NCBI RefSeq assembly: GCF_026151205.1
Contig: NC_087080.1
Coordinates: 2,769,096-2,833,095, forward strand
DNA length: 64,000 nucleotides
Direction: 5' to 3'
Origin: Bolinopsis microptera
Lineage: Eukaryota; Ctenophora; Tentaculata; Lobata; Bolinopsidae
This document shows, piece after piece, positions 2,946 through 63,290 of this stretch; position 1 is the first letter of the stretch; every line of letters starts with the position of its first letter. Position numbers and translations under genes: made by a program. Below the pieces are notes generated by a model. That model was not told where the DNA came from and did not search any database. It worked only from the letters and a program-made list of their open reading frames with translations.

Positions 2946-3071
2946 GTCGGCTAGTTCTAAAGTTCTAGGCTACAATGTTACAAGAAGTTACTGTAAGCGC
3001 ACTGGTATGTCGGCTAGTTCTAAAGTTCTAGGCTACAATGTTACAAGAAGTTACTGTAAGCGTACTGTCGG
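2946..3071. repeat. two-copy 63-bp tandem duplication
   Basis: A 63-bp unit beginning gtcggctagttctaaagttc occurs at 2946 and again at 3009 with almost no change, so the duplication is recent. Confidence 0.9.
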
Positions 3072-6000: not shown

Positions 6001-6145
6001 CTTCTCTTGGTAGTATCTTTCTTGTCGGTTTGTCTGGTAGTGAGCACATTTCGTGATACAGAATTAGCAATATTAGTGTGCTTACATATGATAAGAGTTT
6101 CTTATTGAGTCGCGAAATAGACGGGTTTGCAGTGGTTTAATCACG
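3072..6145. other. non-coding stretch with minor repeats
   Basis: No coding exon is recognisable. The stretch holds a two-copy 18-bp repeat around 4300-4336 (gcgccggagttctatc) and a small hairpin at 5463-5495 with 13-bp arms (gtcttcaagtgct) and a 7-base loop. The remainder is plain AT-rich sequence. Confidence 0.45.
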
Positions 6146-6234
6146 ACGAATACTATATATAGTATTCGTGAATTTATGACATAATACTTGTTGCTCAATA
6201 TATTGAGCAACAAGTATTATGTCATAAATTCACG
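6146..6234. repeat. two adjoining perfect palindromes (24 bp and 68 bp)
   Basis: Bases 6146-6169 form an exact 24-bp palindrome centred on tatata. Bases 6167-6234 form an exact 68-bp palindrome, two 34-bp arms with no spacer, centred between 6200 and 6201. They share three bases. Perfect spacer-free arms of this length would extrude as a cruciform or hairpin, and their identity implies a recent origin. No transposon ends were recognised around them. Confidence 0.95.
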
Positions 6235-8009
6235 GAATTTCAGTCATAATGATATTATTATGATTATGATGACTGATATCCGAAAATTTGCGCAAATCTC
6301 TGTTAACGAAGAATGTGGGGTAGTGAAAAACAAATTGAAATTTTAAAAATCTAGGGCAAGATCGAACGGAAGTGTCCAACAAATTAGAATTTTTAAAATA
6401 TAGGTTATGATTTGCACAATTTTACGATTTTGCAATAGTTTGGAACCGGGAAAATTCTTTAAGGTACAAAATATTTAATATCTGATTCTATAGCTAGCCT
6501 GTATCGTCATTTGGCGGTGACTCGGGTTGTAATATAATTGTCAGTAAATAGTAATACCTATCCATTTCCATAAAATGAATAATGTAACTAGTGTATCTGC
6601 AGTCTGCTGTACGGACATGATACCTTAATACGATAAGCAGCACCTGAACGATAATATTGTAATTGTGAAGCTAGTCTACTTTTTAATGAATTCTTCAATG
6701 ATAAACGTTGCAATTTTGAATGGCCGGTTCAACTTTAATTCTTGTAGTTGTAGTTCTTATTTTGTTGGCCAAGCGTAATGGCATTTAGTGAACTCCTAGT
6801 TGCAACATCTTGATGTCTCGAAAGATCCCTGGTGTAGTTGTACTGCATTAATTCGCCAAATGTCTCTACGGCCACTGTGATGCTTTAGTTTATCCCCATT
6901 TCCCATTAAACGTTTAGCGTCTTCCTTCTGTTTACCGTATTGTCCAGACCGTCACACGTTATGCTTCCAGAGATTTATTTGCTTGCTCTATACGCCTTAA
7001 GTCTTTTCGTTGCTTATAATGTTTCAAATCCACCATACCTGCGGTTTTGTACTGATCGTTAAGTTTGTACTTTGATATCGAGCATCCGTAATAGAGAAAC
7101 GGTTTTTCTTACCTTCCTAACAATTACGTTTGCGCTTAAACCGGGATTTCCTTTACTTACATTTCCATTTCCAACAAACCAACCTTGCAAATTCCGAGAT
7201 TACCCCTGATTTAAAAAACTAAACCCAGAAACTGAAGACCCACGATGTATGTAGTGTCGGCACTGCTAGACAATTCTGTTCCTCTCCTTGAAGGGCCCAT
7301 CCTTTCCAACTCGCTCCTGAAAGAACGGGACAAGAAATGCCGGAAACTGGACAAGAGATTTGGTCTTAGCTCTTGTGAGTGTATTAAAACGGGCTGGCTG
7401 TTTGGGGGGGGGGGGGGGGGGGGGTGGGGCAGATAACCACGATGTACGTGGTTAAGATTATAGTTTTGGGGACTACGATCAGTTTAATTAATTTACAGGG
7501 TGCAAGCTTCCGGCTTTTGGGCGATGCTTTATTATTTTTCTGCCAATCTGTACAACAGGGTGCAAAAACTACGCTTATTGATTTCCTGCTCCACCGCAAT
7601 TGGTGGCCCTTATCATATTAATGATCGTAAGCAAAATATTGGATAATTATTACCTCGTTCATACGATCTTAGCAGGGCTATAAGTATATGCCATATTTTT
7701 ACCTCGTTTGATGTGTATCCTGGCTACGAGCCTATAACTCCTGACTAAGTGATGAGTGAAAATCTAGGTTATTTATTGACTTGCAATATTTCCTGATGTG
7801 TTTTTATTCATTGGTTAATTTGTCCGATTTGTACTTGCATCAGCGACGGGTTCTTGGCTTGATTTGTAGTATCTAGGAAAAGTGTATCAAACAAATTTGG
7901 TGACTTTTGGAAATCTGAAATAGCTCTTGGTTTTGAATTTATAGGATTCTTATGTCTTGAAACTACTGTCTTATAAAGCGTTCTTGAATTTAAAGTCTCC
8001 GCAGTGTTG
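6235..8009. other. non-coding stretch with a 21-G run
   Basis: No gene was recognised. A run of 21 G residues at 7404-7424, followed by t and gggg, could form a G-quadruplex. The short frames crossing it on both strands are artefacts of the run. Confidence 0.45.
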
Positions 8010-21049: not shown

Positions 21050-24000
21050 TCAGGACAACTGCATCGAGTGCGTCCTCCTCCAGCTCAGCATTGAGTTATC
21101 GTTTGTCGGAGTGTAGCCCGGAACCGGTGGTGTGTCTGGGTACTGTTCCATAAATCTGCCTAGACCAACTTTGAAACTGTCTAGCAATGTGATACTCCGG
21201 AGCTCCGATGGGAGCACGTTGAAGAGCTGAGCTGCTCTAACTCTAAAGCTGTTGTCGTAATCTGTTCTTACCGACAACTGTGCGCTTTTGTTCATGGCTG
21301 GGATCTCTGCCTTAATACCATACCTTTGATGAGACTTGAACTCGAAGCCCGTATCGTTCGGAGCATGTTCATTAAGAATTTTCCATACATGAATAATAGA
21401 ATAACGCTCTCTCCGCCTCTGGAGGGACATCAACTTAAGCTTCTTCAGCCTGTCCCAGTACTGGAGATCACGGCAGCCAGATATCTTTCTAGTAAAGGAT
21501 CTCTGTACAGTCTCCAGCTTTTGTATCTCTGTGACTTTTGTAGGGTTCCAGACTGGACAGCAGTACTCTAGCTTGGAGCGAACCATGCTTTTGTATAAAG
21601 TCAGCATGACTACTTGTGACCGGTCTCTAAAGGCACTCAATGTCCAAGCCGCCATTTTTCTAGCTCCTTGAACTGTCTTCTCAATGTGAGGACCCCATGA
21701 CCTACTGCTGCTAACATACACTCCAAGGTCTCTGACAGTTTCCTGTGGTGATATTGCGTGTCCTTTTGGTGTAGTATACTCAACAGTCTCTGGGTAGAAC
21801 GGGAGCTCTCTTAGAGCTTTTGATCCATTCAGGGGGTAGTTTACAACCTCAAACTTCTGTTCGTGTAGCTCCATGTTGTTAACACGTGACCACTCGATGA
21901 CTATGTTGAGATCATCTTGCAGTAACTCCACACTACTCATTCCTCGGATAGCCCCAATCAGCTTTGTGTCGTCTGCAAAGCTGAATCCGTTACTATAGCT
22001 AATGCTGTTCAACAGATCGTTGATGTACAGGATAAATAGGATCGGTCCTAGGACTGTCCCTTGTGGCACCCCACTTGCCACTGGCTGGAAGGATGATTTG
22101 CGACCTTCAACAACGACTGTTTGTTTTCTGTTTAGCAAAAACTCTTTGATCCACCTTAAAACCTGACCACCAATTCCGTATCGACCAAGCTTGGCTAGCA
22201 GCACTGCATGGTCGACCTTGTCAAAAGCTTTGGCAAAGTCGAGGTAAATCACATCAACTTCTTCATCATTGTTGAGTGATTTGTAGATCTGTTCGATGTG
22301 ACTGAGAAGCTGCGTCATGCAACTCCTCTTTTTTCTGAACCCATGCTGGTTCGTATTGATCATCATGTTCTCTTCCAAATGACGAACCAGGTTTTTTCTG
22401 ATTACACGCTCAAATGTCTTTATGATGTGCGAGGTTAAAGACACTGGTCTATAGTTTGCTGGGTCCGTTCTGTCCCCCTTCTTATAGATAGGGGTGATAT
22501 ATTGGGTTTTTAATCCCGCTGGTATATACCCACTGCTGAACGATTCCTGCCAGAGGAGTGTAAGCGGGTCTGCAAGTTGTTCTTTGCAGGCTGTGAGTAT
22601 CCTAGCAGGAATCTCTCCGTCAGGTGCGGCCGAATAGGGATCCAGTTCTCCTAATGCTTCAATGATATCTTTTCTTGTGAAGCTTAGCTCGTTGAATCCG
22701 GAATCCAGTCCCTGAGGTAATCCTTGACTCTTCATACATTCATCAATATCGGCACTCATAGGGTTACTAAATACCTTCTGGTACTGCTTCTGAAGTAACT
22801 CTGACTTGATACTGGGGTCGTCCACTAATGCCCCAGTTTCATCTCTCAACACCGGGATCGTAGATCTGGTCTTCTGGAGACGCTTGGCATACGAAAAGAA
22901 GTATTTGGGGTTCTTCTTTATTGCATCGACTGCCCGGAGTTCTTTTTTGTTCAGTTTCTCAAGGGTCCCTTCCTGTATGGAGTAACACAGCAGTGAAACC
23001 TCCGTTTTCAGTTTAGGGATTAAACTCGAGCTAGGATTCATTTCCTGTAATGCACGTATCCTAGCATTCATCTTCCTTCGTCTTCTTTTCATGACATAAA
23101 CGTGCTTATTCCCTCTTCTCTTCCTTGAGGTAATCTCCGCTGCACTCTCTTTCTTTGGGGAGAACTCCAAGGTTATCTGGAGCACTGTTAGCTTGAACAA
23201 TTCCAGAAAAGCGTTCAAGTCCTCGTCACAGAGTTCCCAGAGCTTCAGCCAGTCGACTTTCTGAAGGCAATCACTGATTGCCACAAAATCGGCTTTGTGA
23301 TAGTCAACTGCCCTGAAAGAGTTTGGGTCGATCTTGCTGGTTTCGTTCTTCTTTCTTCCAGTCATATTAAAACCAAGCTGAATTTCGACCAAGCTGTGGT
23401 CTGATAAAGATGTGGGGTTCACCTTTACTTCTGCGACATACCTAGGAACATTTGTAAGTACAAGATCTAGGGTGCTACCTTCTCTTGTCGACTGGTTTAC
23501 GACCTGTGTTAGAAAGTTACGGTCTATAAACTCTATAAAATCATGACACCTGGCTTCACTTCTTAAGCCTCCATGTTCCCAGTCTATCTCTGGATAGTTG
23601 AAATCTCCAACAACGTATATGTCTGGCACCGTTGTATTTTCTGAGATCGCGTCTATTTTGGCTTGCAGTCTGTCTAGTAAGTTCTTCCAGCCTGAAGTAT
23701 CTGCTCCAGGGGGCCTGTAGACAGTAGCAAAAAGGGTGTTGCATGACTTAACATAGCACATGACCATGTTATTGCTTCTATCCTCGTAGTGATCGGTTTC
23801 TGTCACCACTAGCTGGTCATGAACATAGAGGAGGCAACCTCCTCCTACTCTCTCTGGTCTATCAGATCTAAACGATTGATAGTCTTTTATCTGCACCTGA
23901 GCGTCAGAGATGTAACTCTTTAGCCATGACTCGGTTATGGCTATGAATGGTGGGGGGCAGCTACTTCCTTCGATGATGGTTTCCTGGATGTAGGGTAGTT

Positions 24001-24154
24001 TCCATCTAGAGCTGCTAGTAGCTGCCGGAGATACGCTCTGCCCATTTAAGAGGACAATGGTGGAAAGTTCTGGCTGAACCACTGTGGTGCCATCATGTAC
24101 GGGTATGGGATGGGCGGGTGCAGTCCCGGAACAGCTCGAGTTGCGGGGTGGCAT
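21050..24154 (-). CDS. LINE ORF2: AP-endonuclease and reverse transcriptase
   Basis: This 1034-residue protein nicks target DNA and copies the element RNA from the nick. The first ATG, at 24154, lies inside ORF1. The N-terminal 260 residues are an apurinic-type endonuclease: ITESWL (Glu about 75), YRPPG (about 146), VVGDFNYP (Asp about 184), STLDLVLTN (about 227), and the terminal SDH (about 251). A basic linker (about 265-400) leads to the reverse transcriptase with PIYKKGD, NYRPVSL, LDFAKAFDKVDH, GVPQGTVLGPILFILYIND and the catalytic FADD at about 725. The tail contains RSKLEYCCPVW, typical of CR1/jockey-group elements. All catalytic residues are present and the frame is intact. No RNase H domain is seen. 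Confidence 0.95.
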   Translation of the reverse strand: MPPRNSSCSGTAPAHPIPVHDGTTVVQPELSTIVLLNGQSVSPAATSSSRWKLPYIQETIIEGSSCPPPFIAITESWLKSYISDAQVQIKDYQSFRSDRPERVGGGCLLYVHDQLVVTETDHYEDRSNNMVMCYVKSCNTLFATVYRPPGADTSGWKNLLDRLQAKIDAISENTTVPDIYVVGDFNYPEIDWEHGGLRSEARCHDFIEFIDRNFLTQVVNQSTREGSTLDLVLTNVPRYVAEVKVNPTSLSDHSLVEIQLGFNMTGRKKNETSKIDPNSFRAVDYHKADFVAISDCLQKVDWLKLWELCDEDLNAFLELFKLTVLQITLEFSPKKESAAEITSRKRRGNKHVYVMKRRRRKMNARIRALQEMNPSSSLIPKLKTEVSLLCYSIQEGTLEKLNKKELRAVDAIKKNPKYFFSYAKRLQKTRSTIPVLRDETGALVDDPSIKSELLQKQYQKVFSNPMSADIDECMKSQGLPQGLDSGFNELSFTRKDIIEALGELDPYSAAPDGEIPARILTACKEQLADPLTLLWQESFSSGYIPAGLKTQYITPIYKKGDRTDPANYRPVSLTSHIIKTFERVIRKNLVRHLEENMMINTNQHGFRKKRSCMTQLLSHIEQIYKSLNNDEEVDVIYLDFAKAFDKVDHAVLLAKLGRYGIGGQVLRWIKEFLLNRKQTVVVEGRKSSFQPVASGVPQGTVLGPILFILYINDLLNSISYSNGFSFADDTKLIGAIRGMSSVELLQDDLNIVIEWSRVNNMELHEQKFEVVNYPLNGSKALRELPFYPETVEYTTPKGHAISPQETVRDLGVYVSSSRSWGPHIEKTVQGARKMAAWTLSAFRDRSQVVMLTLYKSMVRSKLEYCCPVWNPTKVTEIQKLETVQRSFTRKISGCRDLQYWDRLKKLKLMSLQRRRERYSIIHVWKILNEHAPNDTGFEFKSHQRYGIKAEIPAMNKSAQLSVRTDYDNSFRVRAAQLFNVLPSELRSITLLDSFKVGLGRFMEQYPDTPPVPGYTPTNDNSMLSWRRTHSMQLS

Positions 24155-25455
24155 GGTAGCTCCGTGGGGTTCAGTTGCTGGGGAATCGGTTGGCGTTGGA
24201 CCTCTTTCCCCCTCCCGATGATAATCTCGTTTCTCAGGCCATCGATTTGTTCCTGAAAACCAGCCTTCATGTTCTCGATGAGCTTCAATAAAAAAGACTC
24301 ATCTTGATCAGTCTTCTTCTCTTGGTTTTCTACTCGTGGCTTGTTGATGGTTGGGGGATACGTAGTGTATCCTGACGAAGCAATGCTGAATTTGGGAAGC
24401 GCATTTCGTCTGTAGGGCTCAGTAGTATTTTCTACTCGTCTGTAAGTCTCTCGTTCTTCTTCTTTTCCGTGGCCAGGACCGTTGCGGGTAAACACCAGGT
24501 GTTGAAAGGTACATTGATCGTCTTCACATCTGATGTTTTTAATGGAAAACTTGCATATTCTGGGATGCCAGTATAGGCACTTTTTACCTTTCTTGCACCC
24601 ATTCTGATGCTTGGCCCCAAAGTCGCAAAACTTGTAACATCTCTTAGGGTGGCTCCTCTCACAGGTTTTGCCGTCTACAAGGACTTTGCCAGTTCGTCCA
24701 TGTGGGCATGCCCTTTTCTTGAAGAGCTCACAGATTTGTTCTTTCTTGTGCCCTGAGGTATTGGGATTCCTCTCCCTCGTCTCCCTTGTCTCATCACGAC
24801 CTCTTCGTGGGCTTATCCTCTCTGATGACTCTGCTTTTTCTTCTTCACTTTCAATCTCATGGTCACTTTTACCTGTATTTTCCTCTGACTCTGTAATAGT
24901 GTCCAGTTTGTCGACACTAGCACTAAGTGCTTGTTTCGGAATCGGTTTCAGTGAGCCTTGTTTTGGAGGGTTTGATGAAAGCAGCATATCCTCCAATTCA
25001 TTCTTTTCCAGACACACGTGGCACATCCAGACAAATCCTTTTGGATTTGTTTCACTCATACTCGTTGCCTTTTTCTTCAGCTCCTCACAGTCGTGACTTC
25101 CCAATAGGCACAATCTGCAGGTGAAAAGAGGCGCGGATTCCAGTGTGTTCTGGTACACTGACTTGCAGTCACTGCATTCAGCTTCAAATAGTGACTCTAT
25201 CTTCAGGATTATTCTGTCAGTCAGGATATCCTGGTTTCGATAAAGCTTTTCCTTACCATCCTCTGACCTGGCTTTGAGTCCAACTAATTTTGCACAAGCC
25301 TCTAGCTGCTGGGCATTGCACTTCTTGACGTTAGTTTTATTTTCCCCATAAGGCAGTGAAGGACTATAGCTCGCAAGGGCTTTCTTGGCGTGCTCATCAG
25401 CTATGTTTGCAAGACCTCCAAGCACAACTTTCTGATTCTCTAGTATCGCTGGCAT
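24046..25455 (-). CDS. LINE ORF1: PHD-like and CCCH zinc-binding protein
   Basis: This ORF1 protein of about 469 residues presumably coats the element RNA. I take the start at the ATG at 25455 (MPAILENQK); the frame is open further upstream but has no earlier ATG nearby. About residues 90-150 contain paired cysteines and a histidine in PHD-like order: CSDC, then CRLC, GSHDC, and finally WMCHVC. PHD-type fingers are known in ORF1 of CR1-like LINEs. An acidic, serine-rich stretch with many Glu follows. About 240-325 carries three to four CCCH-type motifs, seen as CELFKKRACPHG, CERSHPKRCYKFC, CKKGKKCLYWHPRIC and CEDDQCTFQH. A glutamine-rich helical segment (FQEQIDGLRNEI) near the C-terminus could trimerise. 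The last 36 codons overlap ORF2. Confidence 0.9.
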   Translation of the reverse strand: MPAILENQKVVLGGLANIADEHAKKALASYSPSLPYGENKTNVKKCNAQQLEACAKLVGLKARSEDGKEKLYRNQDILTDRIILKIESLFEAECSDCKSVYQNTLESAPLFTCRLCLLGSHDCEELKKKATSMSETNPKGFVWMCHVCLEKNELEDMLLSSNPPKQGSLKPIPKQALSASVDKLDTITESEENTGKSDHEIESEEEKAESSERISPRRGRDETRETRERNPNTSGHKKEQICELFKKRACPHGRTGKVLVDGKTCERSHPKRCYKFCDFGAKHQNGCKKGKKCLYWHPRICKFSIKNIRCEDDQCTFQHLVFTRNGPGHGKEEERETYRRVENTTEPYRRNALPKFSIASSGYTTYPPTINKPRVENQEKKTDQDESFLLKLIENMKAGFQEQIDGLRNEIIIGRGKEVQRQPIPQQLNPTELPCHPATRAVPGLHPPIPYPYMMAPQWFSQNFPPLSS

Positions 25456-25560
25456 TTTCAAAGAGCAGTACCCAGACACGATGTATGATGCTGGATCCAG
25501 CCGGGTCTGAAAAAATGTGCGACAGAAACTTGAAAGTAAGTTACCCTTGTAGTAGGGTAG

Positions 25561-27223
25561 GGGTTATTGGGTAGGTTTTGAAATAACTGATTGATCACGA
25601 TTTTTCTTCAAATAACACAGACAGCGTAATTCTTCAAGCTAAACTGCGTTCAAACGATAACAGCAATGAAATATCCAGCTCCCTTTTAGGATCACAATTA
25701 TAAAATACTGTTTTAACAAAGATTCAAACCTCCCATTAACATCATAGTCGAAAAGAACAAGTTTAACATGTGCATGCCTATCATAGCGGTATGAGTGGTT
25801 TAATCATGTTTTATACCATATTTCAAATTTCAATATCATTATTTAAATGCAACTTAGGACCGGAAAAATTATACCGATATGGTAAGTTGCGCAGTGTGCT
25901 TATGTGCGTATAGTCGTGAAGTTAATAGGTTGAAATTTCAAATTTTAATCTATACCCAGATGCCGATGAGAGAAGTGAAACGAGATCTGAATTGGTATTT
26001 CTCGAAGAACACTTCCACTACTAAATGTAGGTAGTTCGAGAGAACTATTTCATTTTGTTCACTTGGCACATCGCCAATTTTACAAATTTGCCCGATGTCA
26101 TACGTTCCTGTTATGTCAAGATTAAACAATGTTCATCCGTACCCGTTTAATTTTAATAGACATATTTTAAAAGATGATAACGAAATGTACAAAGTTTAGA
26201 TCTTAGATCGGATTGGTTCGTGTCATATGAATGATATGTATTAGTATTAGTATTGCTGTAGCATTAGATGCAGTTCACCACCGTCTCCAGTTAATTACAT
26301 CATCTGGACTGGTACTGGACCACTGCGAGTGCTTTATGGAGAAAATGGAGAAAATTGCATATCGATTACCGTGTCGGCATGCATCTGATAATAGTGAGGT
26401 GACCAGATGCAACTTAGGCTACATGAGGGCAATAGTCTTATTACATATTTGGTGAAATTCGGGTTTAATAAAAAAGGTCTGCTTTGCCGACCCGAGGCCA
26501 AGATGGCTTCCCAGTGGCGTCGCTTGGGTAGGACCTGTATTTACTGGGTTCAACCCGTCTTGAAGTTGAAATCTTAAACGTCCCGACTGATAAGGATTGA
26601 GGAGGGTTCGCAAAGTCAGTACATCTCGTTAGACACATCAACAGCAAAATGGGAACTGGACTGCGCATTTTAGTGCGAGTCGCAAGATCATCCGGAGCAT
26701 AGACATCTAGATTCTAGGTTACCAAAAGCAATTTGATTACTGTGATGCGCATTCTCCTAGAGACCTATAATTGAAAGCCTACTTTAATTGAGAGCCTACG
26801 CCTTCTATAATTGAAGACCTTTCCTGACCGGTTTCATGAAGCTGAGCGTCCAATAATATCAGGTGATCCTGATTCCTGATGTTCCTACTATTGTATTGTT
26901 CGTTAGCCTGATTAAAGTTATATAGTTGTGGGTTACTTACTTAAAATCATGGTTTCCAAGGAATTTTGTTATTGTCGTTGAAGCTAATCCTGCATATATA
27001 TGAACCTTTTCTTGTCCTGTATATTTATTTGTCTGCTTCTATGAAACATGTAAGCTTTGTTATTTCCAGCTCTTAGTATCCATCTTGTTATATTGCTGGC
27101 TAGTGACTACCTTTATTACTATTTTTATTAATATCTTTGTTATGTATCTGTGTCATGTATTTGTTGGGCTGCGTACAGCGTTTAACAATTTGTCACCTAT
27201 TGCTACAGTATACCGTCAAGCTT
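25561..27223. other. non-coding stretch, nothing firmly identified
   Basis: No exon was recognised. At about 26512 the sequence cagtggcgtcgcttgggt resembles the terminus of some DNA transposons, but no inverted partner was found. Confidence 0.4.
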
Positions 27224-33600: not shown

Positions 33601-36600
33601 AGATATATTTCAGATCTAGGGTCGGCGGCAGAGCACAGAGAAGTATTTACAGACGGGAGGTCGACTCCAAAACAACAAGACAGAAACAACGTTCATATTG
33701 ACGAGTTTTTGGAGAAACCTCTTAAAAATAGGGTAAGTTTTTCATCTGAGTTTTTCCAAGTTTCAGATTTTTTTTCAAGTTTCAACGGTTAATAATTAGG
33801 GTATGATTATTCCCTCCGATAACACAATTATAGCTTTTTCCTTTCCTTTAAAAACTCAACTTTTCTTAAGTTTCTTATTGAATTTAACTCGTATGAAGGT
33901 TCTGGAAACATATAATTGACTTAAAGACTACAAAATTTTCTTATCCTACAGGTAAAACTGAACATATGTGGACTCCTGTTCGAAACGTACAAATGTACTC
34001 TTCAAGAATACCCACAGACATTACTAGGGGGTTCAGAACTAGACAACTATTATGATCCCAATAAGAACGAGTACTTCTTCGATCGAAACAGAGAATCCTT
34101 TTCATATATTTTGAACTTTTACCAGACGGGCCGCCTGTACGCTCCCAGCCATGTACCGCCAGATATTTTTGAGGCCGAGCGAGAGTTTTATAAGATAAAC
34201 CTGGCACTACGCCAGAAAACTGCCGCTCAAAATGGGACTAAGAAAATTGTGGCTAAGAAATCAAGGTGGGAAAAGATTGCAAATAAGGTGTGGAAGTTTC
34301 TGAACAATCCTAAGTCGAGTAAGGCGGCCACTGTGTGGGCTTGGCTAGATATTGCGTTTATCATGGTCTCAGTCACTTGTCTAATCGTTGAGACATTACC
34401 AGAGGTAAGCTTTTTTTTTCATGGTATCTATTTCTACATTAAAATACCATTTATGTTCGTATATTAAAACTCGTGAAATGTGGTATATTTTTACCTGACA
34501 TTATTCGGGCTCTGTTAATCGGTTAATCTTCCATTTCAGTTTTAAACTTTAAAATCTTCAGATCAAACTGATGGTGTCAGACAATTCCTCCAGAGAGTAC
34601 AAAATTCTCTTTACGCTTGATACTATCTGTGTAGGATTTTTCACATTCGATCTTATAGCTAGAGGTACGTTTATTGATCATTAGGAAGTAGACATTTCCG
34701 ATAGGAATTGAAATAATAAAAAATTTTATTTTTTATGTTCCCCTCTTGCCCATTTTTGGCTTAAAGTTTCTATTTGTATCCTCCTTATAACATTTGTAAC
34801 ATATGAAACATATTACTATTAATTTATACCATATGTAACATATTATGTTTGGCAGGTGTAACAGCGCCAGACAAGAAAGGGTTCCTCACCTCTCTTATGA
34901 GCTGGCTAGATTTTCTGGCTATACTTCCTTACTTTGTTCTCCTTTTTACTAAGGTAAGTTACAACTTAGTAGTTGTGTGTGAACCGCGTCAGCACTTTCT
35001 CAGCCAGGGTTGGAAATTTTTAGCGAGGTTAAATGATTATGGGTGGAACCGTGGAGGTCCCAACGCTGCCATGAACCATGTTCCATGTGCTAGAACGGAT
35101 GGGCAAATGTAGGTGAGGTGATTTCAGAATCGTCCAGGTGCTAAAGCATAATGCTGAGATTGTTGCTGGTGAAGTAATCGAAGAGGTCGTTCATCGAGAG
35201 GTAATACCTGTAGAGATTGTTCACATATTACGGTGACATTTTTATACCCCTCCCCTTCCCCCTCTCCCTCCTTCCGCATGCTGTAACACATTGCTATTGT
35301 GTGGTCATGTGATGACCCTAGCCCAGGGACAAAAGGAAATCGCGGCGTGTGCGGGATCGCGATTTTTCCCATTATTTGCGACATATTTTACATGTCGACT
35401 GTTATAAATAATCGCCAAAATAATCGCGATTTTCTTTTTTCCCTGCCCTAGGCTGGTATACGTAATATGTGAACGGTCCCAGTATAAGCCCAGTGGTGTG
35501 TTGAGGATTTTCTAGATGTTCTCGTAATTGTTGTGAAGTGTCATCTCGGTGTGTTAACTATCATGGGCCACTGGTACAGCATTCCACTCGGTTCAATCCG
35601 TGAAATCTGTTATTCGTTGTAATTTTAATATGGCATTGCGGTAAGGGGCGAGTCAAAGTAGCATATTTACTTTTGTTATTATTATTAGGAATTGAATGAT
35701 GCAATAGATACGTTAGTCCTACTGACATTAACAATTTACTTTTGTTGCTAGGAATCGAATAATACGATAGAAATATTACGAGTGCTGCGGTTAGCGAGGG
35801 TACTCAGAGTCTTCAAACTTGTGCGGAGAAGCAAAAAGTTACTCCTTATAGGTCAGAATCTTCAATATGTAACACTTTTGCTATTCGCTTATTTTAAGAT
35901 GACATTTTTCTGGGTGTTTTAAAATACCGTGAAACTTCCATTTCTGGAATATCAAATAACGGTATATGGTTTTATATCAGTTCGGGGTTATCATATTATT
36001 ATAAAGATCGGTATTTCACTGTAAAATTGTTTTACCCACGATAACACACTCTTAAAATATAGCTGACTCGCTGTTAGTCTCTATTTCCTTATTTATTTAA
36101 GCTATTTTAAGATTTTCATCATGCTCATTTAACAAACTGCAGCACACGTGATGAAGAAAAGTACGAGTGAGTTGTCACTACTTGTCATGGTGTGGCTCAT
36201 GGCCGTAGTCGTTTTCGGCTCTTTCCTCTACTACGCTGAAAATGGGGTAGGAAATTTATTTTGGAATCTTCACTTCGAACTTCGAACGCTCGTTAAAAAT
36301 AACAACATGAATAGTGTTCATGTTCGAAGTGTTCATTGAACACTGAACAGCGATATACCTTAGTATTTTAATGAAGATTAGCCGATTCTTGTACATTTCC
36401 GAGGAATCTTTACGTTCGAATGTAAAATGATTCAGCACGCTCGATGTTTTTTTCCACAATATTTAACTTGGCTTTGTTTACAGAAGAACGAGAATATCAC
36501 GAGTATCCTGGGTGCATGTTGGTGGGCTGTTGCTACAATGTCAACTGTGGGCTACGGGGACGTATATCCTAAGGTTAGTTTTGTCCTAGAAACCAGGACA

Positions 36601-41965: not shown

Positions 41966-44900
41966 TTACGCCCTCTTTCTTGATTCTGAAATATTCCTTA
42001 TTTCAATTGAAATGATTTTCAAGATAAATCGCCCTATATAGAACATGGGAGATCTCCTTTGAAATTGTCATTAATACAAATTTTAATCGGATAATCTACA
42101 TACAAAGGAAATGGAAGGATCGTTCTAGAATTAAAAGTTTACCTTTCCAATGAACAGATGCTTCAACCTGTAGCTGATATGCCAGAGGATGGATTTTAAA
42201 TCCGTACAATCTGAAATAATGAATCCGTATTAGTGTGGTTACCAGATTAAAAATGGAAACACTAGAAAACTGGTTAATCAACGCAGTAACGTTAGTTTCC
42301 TCAGTTTTATACATTAAAATAACATGGTTGAGACGATAAAATGTGGCATGTAACCGTAAGCATGTACTAGTTATGCAACTTTGTGCAAATCTACCAGAAC
42401 AAACTGTACTTCATGCCAGGTGTCTTCACGATGACGTCATTTAAGAAGCAAAACACATGAGATGTTTAACACAACATGTGGAAAAACGGGCAGTATTATG
42501 GGCACTGTGAAGGACGTTAAGTTTCTCCCCTTTCGGCAGTAGTCTAGTAGGCTGTGATAGAAGCTCAGCAGTTAAGTTAGAAATTTTACGGGAGAAATGA
42601 GCTGGGATTGCAGGAAGTGTAGAGTTAAACGGGTCATAAATTAATTTCCTGGATAAACACTGTCCCAGAAACCGCTAACTATGCAACACTATCATGAGGG
42701 CCTAGTCCTCTAACTTATATCAATATTATGCTTGATTCAGTTTTTGCCGACCGTATACTTCTATTAATGTAGCATATTGTATATTATTATATATGGGCCG
42801 TTTCTAGTCTGATCTCATAGATGAATTAACATAATTCGATATGGGCGCAACAGCTAGCTAAATCAATGAGAAAACGCGCGCGCGCGAGAAGTTAAAATAT
42901 TGCGCAGTCAACACTACAGATTTGTTCACTAAGAAGACCCTTTTGATACGTATTGCGACATGTTGCCAAATCACGTCAGTGTTCAATCAAATTTAGGTCT
43001 AAGATGAAATTAACAAAGCTCGGCCCTACTGAGAGAGAGAGAGAATGACCAGACACGAAGTAATCATATCATAAATGTTAAATGTGATCAGGCAAGGATT
43101 AATCAAGATTTTAACGCTCAATTTTAATCAAGCAAGATAATATCACACCTTACAACTGCAATCATACAAATAACAATGTTCCGCGTAGAAACACTGGTGT
43201 TACCTTGGTATAAATGAGCTAGGGGAAGGTTTAGGTCGATATTCTGGATGGACCATAAACAGCATGTGAGGAAAACTTGTACCAAAATAGGCTCCATCTG
43301 AAGAATAACATCATATAAGATTTATAGAACTTGATGATATACTAACAGTAAAGATAGATGGTAATATGTATATTGTATGTCTCGTATCATTGTATACTTA
43401 TTATATACATACCTGCATACCTAAATGTCCCGTACATACCTATATGATGATATCTGGATGATTTAGGAACATAGACATCTTGACATTTTGGACAATACAG
43501 CTTCACCATACTTTCACCTGTAACAGTAAATTTCTAAAATATGTGTGGTAAGATTAATAATAAAACAAGTATTTCTCATATTGATAATAATTATATGTCA
43601 AATATTTAGAATATTTCATGTTGAAACTTAATCTGGTGAACGATTCCCCGAACTGGGAGAGGGTGCCATATCGCAGTGTTTGATTACACCATGTTTTGAT
43701 ACTAGATAAATATAATAATAAAAACACGTTCATTCTGAAATCTCAAATTTAGCAGAAAACCAGAAGTTTTTGATTTTGGAATGGTACCAGCCAACTTAAT
43801 GTCTTATTCTAATTCCACAATCTTAATAACTATCAGGTTACCATAATGTCACGCCCAATTGAAGGTGAAGTTCCCTTACCAGGGTTGTCAGAGAGTCCTA
43901 TAGGTAACATTAGTTGGTTCTCACAAAATACTCTGATACAAGTCCCGAACTCAGAATTCTGGTACTTCTCAAGCTGAAACAAAAATTATGTTATTAATAT
44001 GTAAGGCAACATTCAGACTAATTTCACCTCTAGGAAACAGGAATGTACATACTTCACATCTTTACACACCAATTCTTACACCAGCCTAAACCCTGATGGT
44101 AGCAGGATAACTTTAAATCAGGGTGTTTCAGCACTTCCCCGTCACAGGTCACTAAGCACCTGTTCATCAAATATACTGCTCAATCAAACATGAATTGTTC
44201 TTACGTTCAAGTCGGCCAGTAAACGTACAGTATTTCATAATAATTCTCGCATAAGTATAATGTCCAATGTCCGTCAGTGTGTTACATATAAAAATCGTAT
44301 ATTATATAAAAATTGTTTGTGAAGCACGTGTATTTGTCGGAGTGACAGTGTTTCAGGAGATATAAGAACAAATACTATCGCTTGTCAATTGCTCGACAAA
44401 ATAGCACACGATTGTCACATTGTCACTGCATATTGTCACTGCATATTGTCACCGCATTACACATAGTTACACAGTGGTACCGTTTGGGACTGGGGATGGT
44501 TTTATTTAATCCGCATGTAATATTGAAATTATTCTAACGACAGATTGTTAACCAATCGGACAATCACCGAGCCCGAACCTTTTAAAGGACCTCACAAATT
44601 CCGATTAATATCTAGATTTCATTTTGGTGTAATTGATCACGCAGCCTGCCATGTCATCGCGGTATCGAAATTTCAAATAAAGGTAATCTGTCAATGACGG
44701 CCAAAATTAGTGAACAAAATTACAGCTTTGATGGGGAGTCAATACGTTTGTTATGTAACTTTATCGTCAAGCGGACTTTCATGAAATCCGTTACACGATA
44801 CCTCGTTACAGCTGCATTATTAGTGCACAAAGATGTTTAATAAAGTATATAACAGACTTCAGACATCGTAACTGTTAATCATTTTCTGTTTTTAATCCCA

Positions 44901-47900
44901 GACTTAATGAGATACCATCCATAACCTAGGAACAGTTAGCGCTGCTATTAATTAACAACACTGCAGACAGAGAACATGTCAGCGTCAGACAGGAGCAAAC
45001 ATGAAGGTGCCCAGAATTTAGATTTCAAGAAGTAACAAATCTTGTCACATGTAAAATGTATAGCGATCATGGTACTCGCGTCATGAGTGGGAACATTTTG
45101 TCAGTTCTATCTAATTACCTTAATATGAAGTACGAACCGTAGCTACGTCCACAGAATTTAACAATTTATGGTCCAACATCTATCAAATTTGGTGCGTATG
45201 CCCAAATATGGGCATATGGTTTTTTGCTTAAAATATTACAGCCGGCCTACTTACCATCATAGCCAGCCCTCTGTTAGTAAGAATGTAACGTGCGTGTATC
45301 AGTCCGTACAACATCTCCGCAGCTTGTTCTACTAAGTCGTTCTGACCTTGCGCATCATCCCCATCATCGTCTGGTTCTAGATCCAGTATCATATCTAGCG
45401 CCTGAGGGGTTACATGTTAACATCCAGTATCATATCTAGCGCCTGAGGGGTTACATGTTAACATACAGTATCATATCTAGCGCCTGAGGGGTTACATGTT
45501 AACATCCAGTATCATATCTAGCGCCTGAGGGGTTACATGTTAACATCCAGTATCATATCTAGCGCCTGAGGGGTTACATGTTAACATCCAGTATCATATC
45601 TAGCGCCTGAGGGGTTACATGTTAACATCCAGTATCATATCTAGCGCCTGAGGGGTTACATGTTAACATCCAGTATCATATCTAGCGCCTGAGGGGTTAC
45701 ATGTTAACACGAGTTTAATCAGTTTCTAAGAATGTGTAAGGAATGTGTGTTTATAAGAATGTGCAGAGATTGGAAATGGTTGTTAATCACACACAGGATG
45801 TTTGTGATATTGTGTAACATACGTTACACAATATAAAACACGTGTGAAGTGCTAACACGTCACTCCACATCACTCTGAGTGGTTTCTAACCTTTCACTAC
45901 ATCCGATTTAAACTTCTGTCACTTCACATCAAACATTCTTCCCATTACATTTAGTGTGAACCCCATCTGAACTACCGTGTATTCTTGTATATCCGTAATC
46001 GATACAAAGACCAAAAATAACAATGTTTTCGTGTCGACCAGTCACCCTATTAATATTCATGTTTCTCTCCGACATGGAGAGCTATTATTATATTATATGG
46101 TCAAAAGTTCTAAATGATGAGCTGTCAGCAAACTTATACTTACCTGTAATTATGATACGTTAAATGTTAGATGTACTACAGTTTGCCACAAGATCATTAA
46201 ATTGAATGTAAAGCTTGGCCTTCGTCACTTGAACCATTAGTTGTGGTACTTTGCAGCCGAGTTTTAAGAGATACAGCAGCAGTCAACTTTATTAAATTAA
46301 GTATGTCATGTAACAGTGTTGGCAGGGAAAGTCTCAATATTAAGGCGCTGAGTTTACAACATGTTTACAACACGTGTACTCTAAACGTCAGAGAAAGATA
46401 ACAGGAAACTGTCTGGGTGTATCAGCTCAGTACACTACATCCTGTTCTACAATACACTACACTACATCCTGTTCTACAAGACACTACACTACATCCTGTT
46501 CTACAAGACACTACACTACATCCTGTTCTACAAGACACTACACTACATCCTGTTCTACAAGACACTACACTACATCCTGTTCTACAAGACACTACACTAC
46601 ATCCTGTTCTACAAGACACTACACTACATCCTGTTCTACAAGACACTACACTACATCCTGTACTACACTACACTACACTACACTACATCCTGTACTACAA
46701 GACACTACACTACATCCTGTACTACAAGACACTACACTACATCCTGTACTACAAGACACTACACTACATCCTGTACTACAAGACACTACACTACATCCTG
46801 TACTACAAGACGCTACACGACATCCTGTACTACAAGATACTACACTACATCCTGTACTACAAGACAATACACTACATCCTGTACTACAAGACACTACACT
46901 ACATCCTGTACTACAAGACACTACACTACATCCTGTTCTACAAGACACTACACTACATCCTGTTCTACAAGACACTACACTACATCCTGTTCTACAAGAC
47001 ACTACACTACATCCTGTTCTACAAGACACTACACTACATCCTGTTCTACAAGACACTACACTACATCCTGTACTACACTACACTACACTACATCCTGTAC
47101 TACAAGACACTACACTACATCCTGTACTACAAGACACTACACTACATCCTGTACTACAAGACACTACACTACATCCTGTACTACAAGACGCTACACGACA
47201 TCCTGTACTACAAGATACTACACTACATCCTGTACTACAAGACAATACACTACATCCTGTACTACAAGACACTACACTACATCCTGTACTACAAGACACT
47301 ACACTACATCCTGTTCTACAAGACACTACACGACATCCTGTACTACAAGACATCCTGTACTACACTACATCCTGTACTACAAGACACTACACTACATCCT
47401 GTACTACAAGACGCTACACGACATCCTGTACTACAAGATACTACACTACATCCTGTACTACAAGACACTACACTACATCCTGTACTACAAGACGCTACAC
47501 TACATCCTGTACTACAAGACACTACACGACATCCTGTACTACAAGACATCCTGTACTACACTACATCCTGTACTACAAGACAATACACGACATCCTGTAC
47601 TACAAGACAATACACGACATCTTGTACTACAAGACAATACACTACATCTTGTACTACAAGACAATACACTACATCCTGTACTACACTACATCCTGTACTA
47701 CAAGATACTACACGACATCCTGTACTAAAAGACAATACACGACATCTTGTACTAAAAGACAATACACTACATCCTGTACTACACTACATCCTGTACTACA
47801 AGATACTACATTACATCCTGTACTACAAGATACTACACGACATCCTGTACTACAAGATACTACACGACATCCTGTACTACAAGATACTACACGACATCCT

Positions 47901-50699
47901 GCACTACAAGATACTACACTACATCCTGTACTACAAGACACACACCGTGCTACAACAAACCTTGGGTATACTATTCCGGGGATATATTCGGATGCTAAGT
48001 GAACGGGGTAGGTGGTACCAAGGTGTTGCCAAGGTGTTACCAAGTTGTTACCAAGGTGTTACCAAGGTGTTACCAAGGTGTTGTGCAGACACAAGAGTTG
48101 AGTGTTAGATCGGGCAACTCTTGAAACATGGGTATTATACTGGGTACTGTGTTTAATCTTATTTTGGTTTAAAGACAGAATCACATGAGTTTATTCTGAA
48201 CAATTTGTTGGTTGAGTAGAATAATTGACGCAATTTCCAACACGGATGAATTGTTCATTTTGATGGCGAAAGTGGCGAACATCAGTCATTAACATAACTT
48301 CTTGCCATTGTTTTCTACTGTGCAGACAACTGTGGTCATTTTCGCCCACAACATTCGAGTGTACTGTGATTATTCACGATCGACTTACTATGTAAAACAG
48401 AAATAAAAGTCACTGCAACAATAGCTGATTATTGCAGATCATTTATTTGTTCTATTAATTGTATCTCTCGATCCAGGTGAGCCCTGTATCCAAATATATG
48501 AGAAATAAAAATCAAAATATGTAAAAAATGATTGCGAAAAGTTCAATTTAGTAGTTTAAATGTGAGCTCAGGCGAAAAGTGAGACTCCAAAATTTGTTGC
48601 TTACTGCTTAGTCTCATTTTTTTCGCGTGGCCACCCCACCCCCCTCCCCGGTCCCCCTAGTAATTAAAATAACAGAGAGTAAACCAGGTACGTGACAAAC
48701 TGTACTCGTGACAGTGTCACGTACAGTTGGTCACGTACACTCGTGACTCAGTTGACAGACAGTACGTGAGTTAGCCACTGTACGTGACACTGTACGTGAC
48801 ACTAAGTTAAACATTGAGAAGTGTATCTTGAAAGTGGTAAGATGATAAGTAACAAACGAGGAAGAAAAGTTGTGTAAAGTGGGAATAATGGGCGTGTAAC
48901 ATTACTGATCAACTGTTGAGCTAACAATTAACATCATGTATATTATACATTGTATACTTTACATTGTACATTCTTTATACATATCTAAACAAAACAATTC
49001 TGCAGCTTAATTGAAATACAATCCCACTTCCACACAATGACCAATATAATATACACATTACACGTTGATTTATTATAAAAACATCAACCAGCCTTTGTCG
49101 ATAACATAGCAAACATATTAACATCAACTTGCTAAATATTAGATCATTGAGTCACAACCACCTGTGCTCTTAAACACTGTATTCTTCAGAAATAGATAGC
49201 ACTTGTACCAGCAAGTAATACAGAAAGTTATGTATATTATTATATACACACACACTAAGTCTGGCTTGAATGACTTAAATATACATCCTTGTTGGGTATA
49301 TTTTAATGTCGAAGCGTGTAATAAATGTTAGAATTTATTTATTTAACATTTAATTAATATAACTTAAATATAAGTATATTATGTACAACATGAGAAGATT
49401 GTTACTGATTACATGTGCAGGTGAGTATAACTTGTTACATTACAGTTTTAAAAAGCGTACACTAAATGTCTCTTTATATGATTAATCATTAGCGGAGCTT
49501 GATCATCATGGCCTCCGTCATTATTTTTATCGTGATTTACTTTTGAGAAATGTACCGTGATCAAAAAATAATTTGATGTTCCCGGGCATTTCAAGCCAAT
49601 TACATGATTGTATTTTGTGAACATACGTGTAAAAAGGCACGGGCAATACCACAACTAAAAAACACGCTTGTCTACAGTAACTGTCTAGTACCTTCTAGTA
49701 CCTTCTAACTAGTACTATACTAATACGCCTCAGATCACTGCCCGAACCACCAATTTGAAGAAGAACAGAACTTGCCCATGCTCACCATGCTAGAATTAAA
49801 AACCCAGACTTCCCAACATTATTCGGAGGGAACCATGTCAAAAGAGAAAATACAGCTCACAATTAGAACATGACTGGTTAGATCTCATGACGTCACCAAC
49901 TATGTCTGTATATAATGTATACACTGTATAATGTATACACTGTATATAATGTATACACTGTATATAATGTATACAATGTATATAATGTATACTATGTCTG
50001 TATATAATCTGTATATAATGTATACACTGTATAATGTATATAATGTATACACTGTGTCTGTATATAATGTATACACTGCTTTATTCAGTCTGTATGGGAT
50101 GCACTGCTACTACAAACAGTAAAGTCTCCACTTCATGTTGAATATTTAAGATTGTCACTAAATATTTCCTGTATTTTCTGGTAATTAAAATTATAGAACT
50201 GGAGATATCTGTCACGTGACAGCAAATGATCAATCATTACACTTATAATCTTAGTCTAATGTTAGCCATTTACCCGCAAATCTATTACATTTATTGATTA
50301 TTACGTAACGCGATGGAACTATTTTAGGCGGGTAATATCCTGTCCAAACCCAGGATACATAACATATGAAGACTGTGTTGTAACTTTGTATGAAAAGCAT
50401 TAATATATCATATTTATTGGCAAATCAACTGATCATGATGAAAAGGTTGGACCGTTGGGTCAATATTTTAAAAAGTTTCTATTTTATGACCACGTACTGC
50501 TGAAATCCGTAAATTTGAAAAGTATTGAATAATTTTGAAAAACCAACCTTTTTATAATGAGGAATCATGTCCGATAAACCGGTGAGGTTAAATTTGTCCT
50601 GGATGTAATCCTCGTCAACCTCACAGAAATACTCATTACCTCGCAGGCCACAGAACCAATTTATCCAGGATACTTCTTCTGAACTGGACATATCTGAAC
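41966..50699 (-). CDS. CSNK2B: casein kinase 2 regulatory (beta) subunit, seven coding exons
   Basis: The exons on the minus strand are 50699-50548 (ATG at 50691), 45401-45255, 43973-43880, 43517-43440, 43297-43204, 42210-42143 and 41985-41966. Borders are GT/AG and phases match, giving 214 residues against 215 in human. The protein dimerises and links two catalytic CK2-alpha subunits, setting the substrate choice of this nuclear and cytoplasmic Ser/Thr kinase. It starts [20 protein letters not shown], the autophosphorylation site region. An acidic loop (LEPDDDGDD) follows, then the zinc-finger dimer interface with C109, C114, C137 and C140 at the same numbers as in human, then the alpha-binding RLYGFKIHP. 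Divergent spots are the C-terminus (WKESRKRA) and [12 protein letters not shown]. If the last intron is retained, the protein instead ends [15 protein letters not shown]. Coding intron 1 is 5.1 kb and holds large repeats, including copies of its own acceptor. Confidence 0.96.
45383..45710. repeat. eight 41-bp units, each carrying the CK2-beta exon 2 splice acceptor
   Basis: Units start at 45383, 45424, 45465, 45506, 45547, 45588, 45629 and 45670, almost identical (one has acagta for ccagta). On the minus strand each unit reads gttaacatgtaacccctcag, an intron end with a branch-point-like ttaac, and then the first 21 nt of coding exon 2 (ALDMILD). Only the unit at 45383 joins the full exon. The other seven are extra acceptors lying upstream in the transcript. 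Confidence 0.97.
46431..47945. repeat. 27-bp minisatellite, about 56 units, in CK2-beta intron
   Basis: The unit contains actacactacatcctgtact followed by acaagac; most differences are t/a at one position and small variants such as cgctacacgac. A block of fourteen units (378 bp) is itself repeated: the variant cluster at 46807 recurs at 47185, showing higher-order duplication. Because 27 is divisible by three, several frames stay open on both strands for hundreds of codons. These are not genes. Confidence 0.98.
48006..48085. repeat. eleven-base tandem repeat, tgttaccaagg
   Basis: About seven units of ggtgttaccaa with minor variants follow the 27-bp minisatellite in the same intron. Confidence 0.9.
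48686..48805. promoter_or_regulatory. cluster of six TACGTGAC-type motifs
   Basis: Within 120 bases, gtacgtgac or its near variant occurs in forward orientation at about 48688, 48761, 48780 and 48791. It occurs inverted (gtcacgtac) at about 48717 and 48730. The ACGTGAC core resembles sites bound by bZIP or bHLH factors, and clustering in both orientations would suit an intronic enhancer of CK2-beta. It may equally be a decayed repeat. Confidence 0.35.
48806..49905. other. CK2-beta intron sequence, nothing identified
   Basis: AT-rich intronic DNA without a recognised exon or repeat. Confidence 0.4.
49907..50085. repeat. TA-rich repeat, tgtatataatgtatacac
   Basis: Roughly ten irregular units of tgtatataatgtatacac, with some lacking a few bases, lie in CK2-beta coding intron 1. 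The unit is partly self-complementary. Confidence 0.9.
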
Positions 50700-61551: not shown

Positions 61552-61655
61552 TAAATATCGTTTAAATTAAAATTAAGATTCGCTTTCTCTATCATTTTTA
61601 ACTATGAGCACTTAAAACTTCAATTTACAATAACATTATTGCAGGATAATTGACT

Positions 61656-62830
61656 ATGCCAGAGCTTAGTAACATATCACCAGCTGCTGCTGAAGAAACG
61701 TTTTATCAGAATTTTGACAATTTAACTCAGATAAATCAGGAGTATAAAACGGAACAGGATTTAGACAAGCCAACCCTGATAAAACAGGAGGTTAAAACTG
61801 AGCAGGATTTTGACGATTTAATCTTGATAAAACAGGAGATTAAAACTGAGCAGGATTATGATAATTTAACTCTGATACCTAATCTGGCGATTAATACTGA
61901 GCGTAATGAACTGGAAGGAAATAGTTTCATTTGCCCGAAATGTGATACCTATTTCCTGAATGACTATTGCTTTGTTGAGCATGTAAAAGAACACCATCAA
62001 GAAACGATCAGTTCAAATCCAAATTCTAATGAATTGATAAGTGCTGAACCATTATCAGAGAGAATGTTTAGTCATTCAAAATTCAATTCTAAACTTCTTG
62101 CACATGAGCGTCGCGTATTCATACCGGAGATAAACCTTTCAAGTGTAATAAATGCTCCTCATGTTTCACTGGGAAATCTACTCTCAAAATACATCAGAAT
62201 ATTCACACAGGAGGTAAACCTTTCAAGTGTAATGATTGCTCCTCATCTTTTACTCAGAAATATAATCTTAAAACACATCAGCGTATTCACACTGGAGAAA
62301 AACCTTTCAAGTGTAATGAATGCTCCTCATCTTTCTCTCATAAATCTAATCTCAAAGTACATCAGCGTATTCACACTGGAGAAAAACCTTTCAAGTGTAA
62401 TGAATGTCCCTCATCTTTCTCTACGAAATATAATCTCAAATCACACCAGGGTATTCACACAGGAAAGAAACATTTCAAGTGTAATGAATGCCCCTCATCT
62501 TTCCAGGACAAATCTTCTCTCAAATCACACCAGGGTATTCACACAGGAGGTAAACCTTTCAAGTGTAATGAATGCTCCTCATCTTTTACTCAGAAATATA
62601 ATCTTAAAACACATCAGCGTATTCACACTGGAGAGAAACCTTTCAAGTGTAATGAATGCCCCTCATCTTTCTCTACGAAATATAATCTCAAATCACACCA
62701 GTGTATTCACACAGGAGATAAACCTTTCAAGTGCAATGAATGCCCCTCATCTTTCCAGAACAAATCTTCTCTCAAAACACATCAGGGCATTCACACAGTC
62801 CGAGAGATATCTTTCAAGTGTAATGAATAA
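61656..62830 (+). pseudogene. C2H2 zinc-finger gene with a frame break before the finger array
   Basis: The ATG at 61656 follows a possible acceptor (ttattgcag, 61644). About the first 150 residues hold three lysine motifs of the VKTE/IKTE/IKQE type, matching the SUMO-attachment consensus, and one C2H2 finger (CPKCDTYFLNDYCFVEHVKE). A decayed finger follows (SERMFSHSKFNSKLLAHERR) in which both cysteines are lost. At about 62112 the frame breaks: eight intact fingers (FKCNECSSSF, then LKTHQRIHTG) continue from 62114 to a TAA at 62828 in another frame, with a TGA just before them at 62105 in that frame. Removing two bases (cg) would rejoin the parts. After the stop, degraded finger sequence continues to about 62930. 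Poly(A) signals (AATAAA) occur at 63094 and 63145. An intact gene would encode a nuclear DNA-binding protein. A sequencing error remains possible. Confidence 0.85.
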
Positions 62831-63290
62831 TCATTATCTGTCACTGATGAATCTACTCCCAAAAGAGATCAACGTATTTACAATGGAGATAAACTTTTAA
62901 AGTTAATTGAAATGCTTGTTATCTTTCTCTCAAAGTTTCGTGCTGAGATTCTTAATACAGATTTTGGAGCATCATAGCACATAAAAAAGCCAAGGGGAGT
63001 TATTTATAGAAGTCACTTTATTGCCTTTTTTGAAAAACCCAATTATTATTTTCTGTTGAGGTCGAGCCTGTTTTTTTCAAGTTCTTCATTTCAAATAAAA
63101 ATTTGTATGGTTTCTTAAAATTTGTATGGTTGTATGTTGTTTACAATAAAAGATATTTTAATCATTTTTTTGCCTTATAATGAGTTATACTTTTGTTCAC
63201 ATTTACACATTTGCTCACCTCACTCATAGTCAGCCGCTCTGTCATGGTTAACCACCTTTCTTGTTATGTTGGTTAATCATATGAGCGGGA
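62831..63290. other. zinc-finger gene 3' flank
   Basis: The first 100 bases are decayed finger units read past the stop (for example QRIYNGDK). Two AATAAA hexamers, at 63094-63099 and 63145-63150, mark likely transcript ends. A short direct repeat (aaaatttgtatggtt) lies between them. Confidence 0.6.

What the first reader, a model, noticed from the sequence alone, without database searches (positions are those of the whole stretch)
45255..45710. Eight tandem copies of the CK2-beta exon 2 splice acceptor
Each 41-bp unit holds a branch-point-like ttaac, the acceptor CAG and the first 21 nt (seven codons, ALDMILD) of a highly conserved exon. Seven extra acceptors precede the real one in the transcript. 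Using an upstream copy as a simple acceptor reads [10 protein letters not shown] and then TAA, a truncation that nonsense-mediated decay could remove. If the gttaac after each 21-nt piece acts as a donor, each unit becomes a 21-nt, frame-neutral microexon that could add ALDMILD repeats. Either way, copy number could tune CK2-beta output. That a tandem array is fused to a core kinase exon without destroying it is unusual.
Basis: partly seen in the sequence, partly recalled or inferred. Interest (0 to 1): 0.85.

Follow-up and report, generated by a model that had tools for sequence, protein, structure and literature searches.

The report
Repeated splice site before CK2-beta exon
A short stretch spanning the start of an exon in a core kinase-subunit gene has been copied eight times in a row, leaving seven decoy splice sites before the real one; it is most likely a young repeat of a type already described in lancelets ("mirages"), useful mainly as a natural test of how cells pick the right splice site.

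Summary
On the minus strand, 45708-45381 holds eight 41-bp copies (seven identical, one with a single change). Each has 20 nt of intron end and 21 nt of exon start (ALDMILD). The last copy opens the real coding exon 2 of the only CK2-beta gene found in a 264.65-Mb genome of unnamed species. Every upstream acceptor leads to an early stop. The microexon idea is weak: gttaac scores like an average GT, and neighbouring units would need 20-nt introns.

The array is best read as a young minisatellite seeded by tandem duplication across the acceptor. The genome is rich in minisatellites and the window is typical of it. In 200 kb sampled elsewhere I found a second case, on the donor side: 47 copies of a Cep192 exon end plus donor.

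The same structure is in print as "mirages" in amphioxus, where mRNAs are reported to splice normally, and as a donor-type minisatellite in human IFI6. So this is a new member of a known kind. My inference: most transcripts use the 45401 acceptor, with some leak to NMD. Whether copy number tunes CK2-beta output is untested.

The parts
45381..45708 (-). Tandem array, eight 41-bp units, each 20 nt intron end + 21 nt exon start (ALDMILD)
45463..45503 (-). Unit 6, the only one with a change (CTGGAT to CTGTAT, D to Y if read)
45422..45708 (-). Seven extra units; acceptors at 45688, 45647, 45606, 45565, 45524, 45483, 45442, each leading to an early stop
45709..45725 (-). Unduplicated intron just upstream of copy 1; holds branch-point-like CTGAT, A at -31 from acceptor 45688 only
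   Evidence: inference from consensus yUnAy (recalled)
45255..45401 (-). Coding exon 2 of CK2-beta (147 nt), acceptor 45401, donor ATG|gtaagt
50548..50691 (-). Coding exon 1 part from ATG to donor AAG|gttggt, phase 0
43880..43973 (-). CK2-beta coding exon 3
43440..43517 (-). CK2-beta coding exon 4
43204..43297 (-). CK2-beta coding exon 5
42143..42210 (-). CK2-beta coding exon 6; the last exon with the stop was not located

Best explanation
A young 'mirage'-type minisatellite. A 41-bp tandem duplication that happened to cross the intron-1/exon-2 acceptor of CK2-beta was followed by expansion to eight copies. The last copy kept the real exon, so the coding sequence was not broken. Shown: the anatomy, the near-identity of the copies, the single CK2-beta gene found, the minisatellite-rich genome, and a second junction-straddling array (donor side, Cep192) in the same genome. 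Inferred: the spliceosome mostly joins 50548 to 45401, because that acceptor gives the shortest exon (147 nt) in front of the strongest donor of the gene; some transcripts use an upstream copy, gain a stop after [10 protein letters not shown] and are removed by NMD. The array is tolerated rather than selected.
For: Eight units, one difference in 328 bp, so young or recently homogenised. One place found in the genome, so not a dispersed element. Sampled 200 kb: 14 arrays of period 15-100 with 5 or more copies (70 per Mb) against 4 in the window (62.5 per Mb). Random placement of a 41-bp unit in the span of this gene covers an acceptor junction in 2.35% and a donor junction in 2.35% of positions. 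Donor-side analogue: 47 copies of 43 bp in Cep192. Published amphioxus mirages have the same anatomy and are reported not to interfere with regular splicing (passages of PMC3087553 and PMC3902484). Donor behind exon 2 scores 6.54, the highest of six.
Against: No transcript data, so the splicing part is inference. The branch-point-like CTGAT at -31 stands only before copy 1, which would favour the farthest decoy; copies 2-8 have only TTAAC at -16. The acceptor itself is the weakest of the six in the gene (1.06 against 2.0 to 5.3). Frequency of such arrays rests on one case in 200 kb; 0 of 24 proteasome exon matches are overlapped by an array.
Confidence: 0.8

Rival explanations
1. A selected regulatory device: copy number sets the share of transcripts lost to decoy acceptors and NMD and so tunes CK2-beta output.
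For: All seven decoys give an early stop far enough before the next donor for NMD; the acceptors share the same 20 intronic nt; amphioxus mirages vary in copy number between haplotypes (PMC3087553, passages).
Against: Near-identity of units and the abundance of minisatellites fit neutral origin; the published mirages are reported to leave mRNAs normal; no expression or population data.
Confidence: 0.08
2. Microexons: single units are spliced in as 21-nt exons and add ALDMILD repeats to the protein.
For: 21 nt keeps the frame; the 20-nt spacer begins with gt and ends with ag. Weak donors do occur in this gene (AAG|gttggt, 1.86), and my attempt to calibrate donors on proteasome exon matches was too noisy to exclude weak ones.
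Against: gttaac scores -4.8, about the median of all GTs; neighbouring units would need 20-nt introns, and the last unit cannot be joined to the real exon except over 61 nt or more. The best pseudo-donor in the unit shifts the frame.
Confidence: 0.03
3. Assembly artefact: the array is false or of wrong copy number in the assembly.
For: Identical short units are a known source of error; one published amphioxus mirage appeared aberrantly assembled in a draft (PMC3087553, passage).
Against: The array is only 328 bp, in a contig of 17.4 Mb of an assembly of 232 contigs; one base marks unit 6; a 2-kb array of 47 units in Cep192 is laid out with individual differences. Which reads were used is unknown to me.
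Confidence: 0.05

Closest known systems
Amphioxus 'mirages' in Adh3, globin BflGb6 and BflGb9, troponin C, and similar imperfect repeats in PGBD5 (PMC3087553 and PMC3902484, passages seen)
   Same: Minisatellite-like tandem copies that span an intron-exon boundary, on either side of exons, with the authentic boundary kept; Adh3 units of 10-72 bp cover the 41 bp seen here; many copies carry splice signals.
Human IFI6 (6-16, G1P3) minisatellite giving several splice donors (Turri et al. 1995; seen only as cited in passages of PMC4526556)
   Same: A minisatellite at an exon edge that supplies repeated splice sites.
   Different: Donor side, and downstream units are reported to be used as donors; here the acceptor side. 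The 1995 paper itself is not held.
[quoted passage not shown] abstract and results section seen)
   Same: The duplication crosses an intron end and exon start and inherits branch site, pyrimidine tract and acceptor.
   Different: Two copies with ten differences, and a cryptic GTAAG donor made a new intron, shown by 106 RNA-Seq reads. Here eight copies and no good donor, so no new intron is expected.
NAGNAG tandem acceptors (PMC3250501, search listing only)
   Same: More than one acceptor at one exon.
   Different: Three bases apart and frame-keeping; here 41 bp apart and truncating.

Membership tests
Amphioxus-type mirage | Minisatellite-like tandem repeat | tested here: met
   8 x 41 bp, 99% matches
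Amphioxus-type mirage | Each unit spans an intron-exon boundary | tested here: met
   20 nt intron end + 21 nt exon start in each unit
Amphioxus-type mirage | Authentic boundary kept beside the copies | tested here: met
   Last unit opens the 147-nt exon, frame and next donor intact
Amphioxus-type mirage | Copy number varies between haplotypes or tissues | not testable with these tools
   One assembly, no reads
Amphioxus-type mirage | Regular mRNA splicing not disturbed | not testable with these tools
   No transcripts
Amphioxus-type mirage | Found in a cephalochordate (where described) | not tested
   Species not named; COX1 not found in the assembly. 161 of 207 residues shared with human CK2-beta and 264.65 Mb make a lancelet unlikely in my judgement
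Intron gain by tandem duplication | A usable donor inside the duplicated copy | tested here: not met
   gttaac -4.8, gtaacc -0.17, ACT|GTATGT of unit 6 0.04, against 1.86-6.54 for the six real donors; matrix recalled, and calibration on other genes failed
CK2-beta (casein kinase 2 regulatory subunit) | Family profile match and the four zinc-binding cysteines | tested here: met
   PF01214 E 4.5e-76, profile positions 1-182 of 182; Cys 109, 114, 137, 140 kept (positions recalled)

The most novel reading that the evidence does not exclude
Junction-straddling minisatellites are a genome-wide class in this animal, hundreds or more, on acceptor and donor sides. In some core genes such as CK2-beta their copy number, changing fast between individuals or somatically, sets the fraction of transcripts lost to decoy sites and so tunes gene dosage.
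Probability: 0.08. Interest if true: 0.75.

Novelty: new member of a known kind. Interest (0 to 1): 0.35.

Why it matters
Eight acceptors that share the same 20 intronic nt in one core gene, and 47 near-identical donors in another gene of the same genome, are natural competition experiments on how the spliceosome picks one of several equal sites (first made, nearest to the partner, or best exon size). They may also be an early step from which new introns or truncated isoforms arise. If mirages occur well outside lancelets, they are a by-product of minisatellite-rich genomes rather than a lancelet peculiarity.

Tried and rejected
Microexon model: weakened by the donor score and by 20-nt internal introns. 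In-frame read-through of an extended exon: rejected, each of the seven upstream acceptors meets a stop after ten codons. Dispersed repeat family: one place found. Known structured RNA: no Rfam match at gathering score in the window. Naming the species: COX1 profile found nothing in the assembly, left open. Splice-site calibration on 20 of the 24 proteasome exon matches (four single-exon-like ones left out): 19 best-guess donors, 2 at or below -4.8 and 9 at or below -0.17; 18 best-guess acceptors, 9 at or below 1.06; many guesses are plainly wrong, so not used. Proteasome exon survey: 0 of 24 matches overlapped by an array; small arrays lie about 6-12 bp (L037) and 55 bp (L030) past a match. 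ORFs abutting ten other window arrays (period 15-150, 2.7 or more copies): 22 scanned, no Pfam family at E 0.01. A bacterial promoter scan was irrelevant. A figure printed for the chance of a random 41-mer match is a crude order of magnitude and is not used.

Full report
What is there. On the minus strand, 45708-45381 holds eight head-to-tail 41-bp units. Each is gttaacatgtaacccctcag (intron end) followed by GCGCTAGATATGATACTGGAT (exon start, ALDMILD). Seven units are identical; unit 6 (45503-45463) has one change in its exon-like part. The last unit runs into the real exon 45401-45255, which ends in ATG|gtaagt. The 481-bp region was found at one place in the 264.65-Mb assembly.

The gene. A six-frame search with the CK2-beta profile gives four exon matches, all in this locus, one of them just below the curated cut-off; so this is the only copy found. 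Six coding exons were placed by hand: 50691-50548, 45401-45255, 43973-43880, 43517-43440, 43297-43204 and 42210-42143, each followed by GT, the last five preceded by AG and the first holding the ATG. The final exon with the stop was not located. The joined protein is colinear with human CK2-beta (E 1.4e-117): 161 of 207 residues are identical and the four zinc cysteines (positions recalled) are kept. The gene looks intact over the part examined.

What the extra copies could do. Six of the seven upstream acceptors give [14 protein letters not shown], the one of unit 6 [14 protein letters not shown]. The stop lies 155 to 401 nt before the exon-2 donor, so NMD is expected by the usual rule (recalled). 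With acceptor 45401 the exon is 147 nt; with the farthest it is 434 nt. The 20 intronic nt are the same at all eight sites, so the acceptor score is the same (1.06 on a matrix written from memory); the other five acceptors of the gene score 2.0 to 5.3. A branch-point-like CTGAT (A at -31) stands before copy 1; copies 2 and 8, and by identity the others, have TTAAC with its A at -16 and no nearer match. This counts against exclusive use of 45401 and is a result against my reading. In favour of 45401 are exon size, the strong donor behind it (6.54, highest of six), and the reported behaviour of amphioxus mirages (below).

Microexons. Joining neighbouring units would need a 20-nt intron; skipping one unit gives 61 nt. 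gtaacc scores better (-0.17) but yields a 29-nt frame-shifting piece. Weak donors do exist in this gene (AAG|gttggt, 1.86), and my attempt to calibrate on proteasome exon matches was too noisy. So the idea is unlikely, not excluded.

Is the genome prone to this? Twenty 10-kb stretches from ten contigs hold 14 arrays with period 15-100 and at least 5 copies, or 70 per Mb; the window holds 4, or 62.5 per Mb. Scaled up this is about 18,500 arrays (95% interval 10,100-31,100). A 41-bp unit placed at random in the span of this gene covers an acceptor junction in 2.35% and a donor junction in 2.35% of positions, and a complete acceptor (at least 16 intron nt) in 1.5%. Arrays across exon borders are thus expected without selection.

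A second case. While scoring array units for splice motifs (26 arrays of period 20-100 and at least 3 copies, six of them in the window) I noticed one on L016 with CAG|GTGAGC in its unit. Reading its edges showed an exon, 3152-3252, whose last 22 nt plus the first 21 nt of the intron recur, with 47 CAG|GTGAG donors between 3253 and 5262; 25 of 47 units equal the consensus and 42 of 47 have at most two differences. Joined with its neighbours the exon matches Cep192 domain 3 (E 2.5e-5, 24.7 bits, just below the curated 27) and, next best, a HYDIN/CFAP65-like Ig domain (8.2e-5, also below its cut-off); in the PDB the best chains are FAP65, Hydin and CFAP65 at E about 1e-4. Neighbouring exons of the same stretch match Cep192 domain 4 (6.3e-5, below cut-off) and domain 5 (1.5e-18, above cut-off). 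I take it as a Cep192 gene with a donor-side array. Of the 47 donors, the first two read to the end of the next exon without a stop, the second in a shifted frame; the other 45 meet a stop.

How common. The sample has 33 arrays with period 15-150 and at least 3 copies. Of 328 listed ORFs of 38 aa or more near them, the 83 distinct ones that reach an array edge were scanned. Fifteen families appeared at E up to 0.05; Cep192 D4 and D5 and a KH domain looked real, the other twelve (0.0016 to 0.047) I took as chance without further test. The Cep192 donor exon itself was found by eye and not by this scan, so the scan is insensitive and 1 of 33 is a lower bound. One in 200 kb scales to about 1,300 genome-wide, with an interval of 34 to 7,400, so little weight can be put on it. 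Against commonness: 0 of 24 proteasome exon matches overlap an array, and 22 ORFs abutting ten other window arrays gave no Pfam family. The KH exon (L023, minus strand; 7.4e-4, below its cut-off) has a 26-bp, 13-copy array starting about 20 bp after its donor, units ending in acceptor-like ttatttcag or tcatttcag; that array is intronic and holds no exon sequence.

What is known. [quoted passage not shown] Troponin C is another case and PGBD5 an imperfect one (PMC3902484, one passage). Human IFI6 has a minisatellite supplying several donors (passages of a citing paper, PMC4526556). In potato RdRp a duplication across an acceptor made a new intron (PMC4974935, abstract and results); some Drosophila introns are attributed to tandem duplication (PMC2891723, passages). 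The CK2-beta array meets the three anatomical features of a mirage; copy-number variation and undisturbed splicing could not be tested. A search for 'mirages' with related words returned one paper, on amphioxus, and one with 'mirage', 'minisatellite', 'amphioxus' and 'intron' two.

I did not see this CK2-beta case in print, but only one search named the gene (csnk2b: 8 of 322 papers listed, none of the 8 holding the gene name); the other nine answered searches were about repeats and splice sites in general, and the library holds open-licence PMC papers only.

Verdict. A real, correctly read, young mirage-type minisatellite in a core gene: a new member of a known kind. Origin by local duplication is well supported; mostly normal splicing with some NMD leakage is inference; a regulatory role is possible and untested.

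Noticed in passing
L016 3231-5275 (own genome C6, near 6.003 Mb): Donor-side counterpart in a Cep192 gene: 47 tandem 43-bp copies of an exon end plus CAG|GTGAG donor.
   Followed up: yes
L023 4415-4755, minus strand: Intronic 26-bp, 13-copy array starting about 20 bp after the donor of a KH-like exon; each unit ends in an acceptor-like sequence (ttatttcag or tcatttcag).
   Followed up: partly
L016 7312-7963: 69-bp, 9.4-copy array that fills most of the intron between exons matching Cep192 domains 4 and 5.
   Followed up: partly
46431-47945: 1.5-kb minisatellite (27-bp base unit) in the same CK2-beta intron, open in several frames on the plus strand; looks like simple repeat, no protein evidence sought.
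   Followed up: no
21050-25563, minus strand: LINE-like element: ORF with endonuclease and reverse transcriptase domains (RVT_1 5.8e-32) behind an upstream ORF without a Pfam match.
   Followed up: partly
33925-34467: Open frame with a BTB_2 domain (2.2e-22) that looks like the start of a voltage-gated potassium channel (recalled).
   Followed up: no
61650-62930: C2H2 zinc-finger region with an 84-bp coding repeat, and a 48-bp repeat upstream (61707-61877) in another open frame.
   Followed up: no
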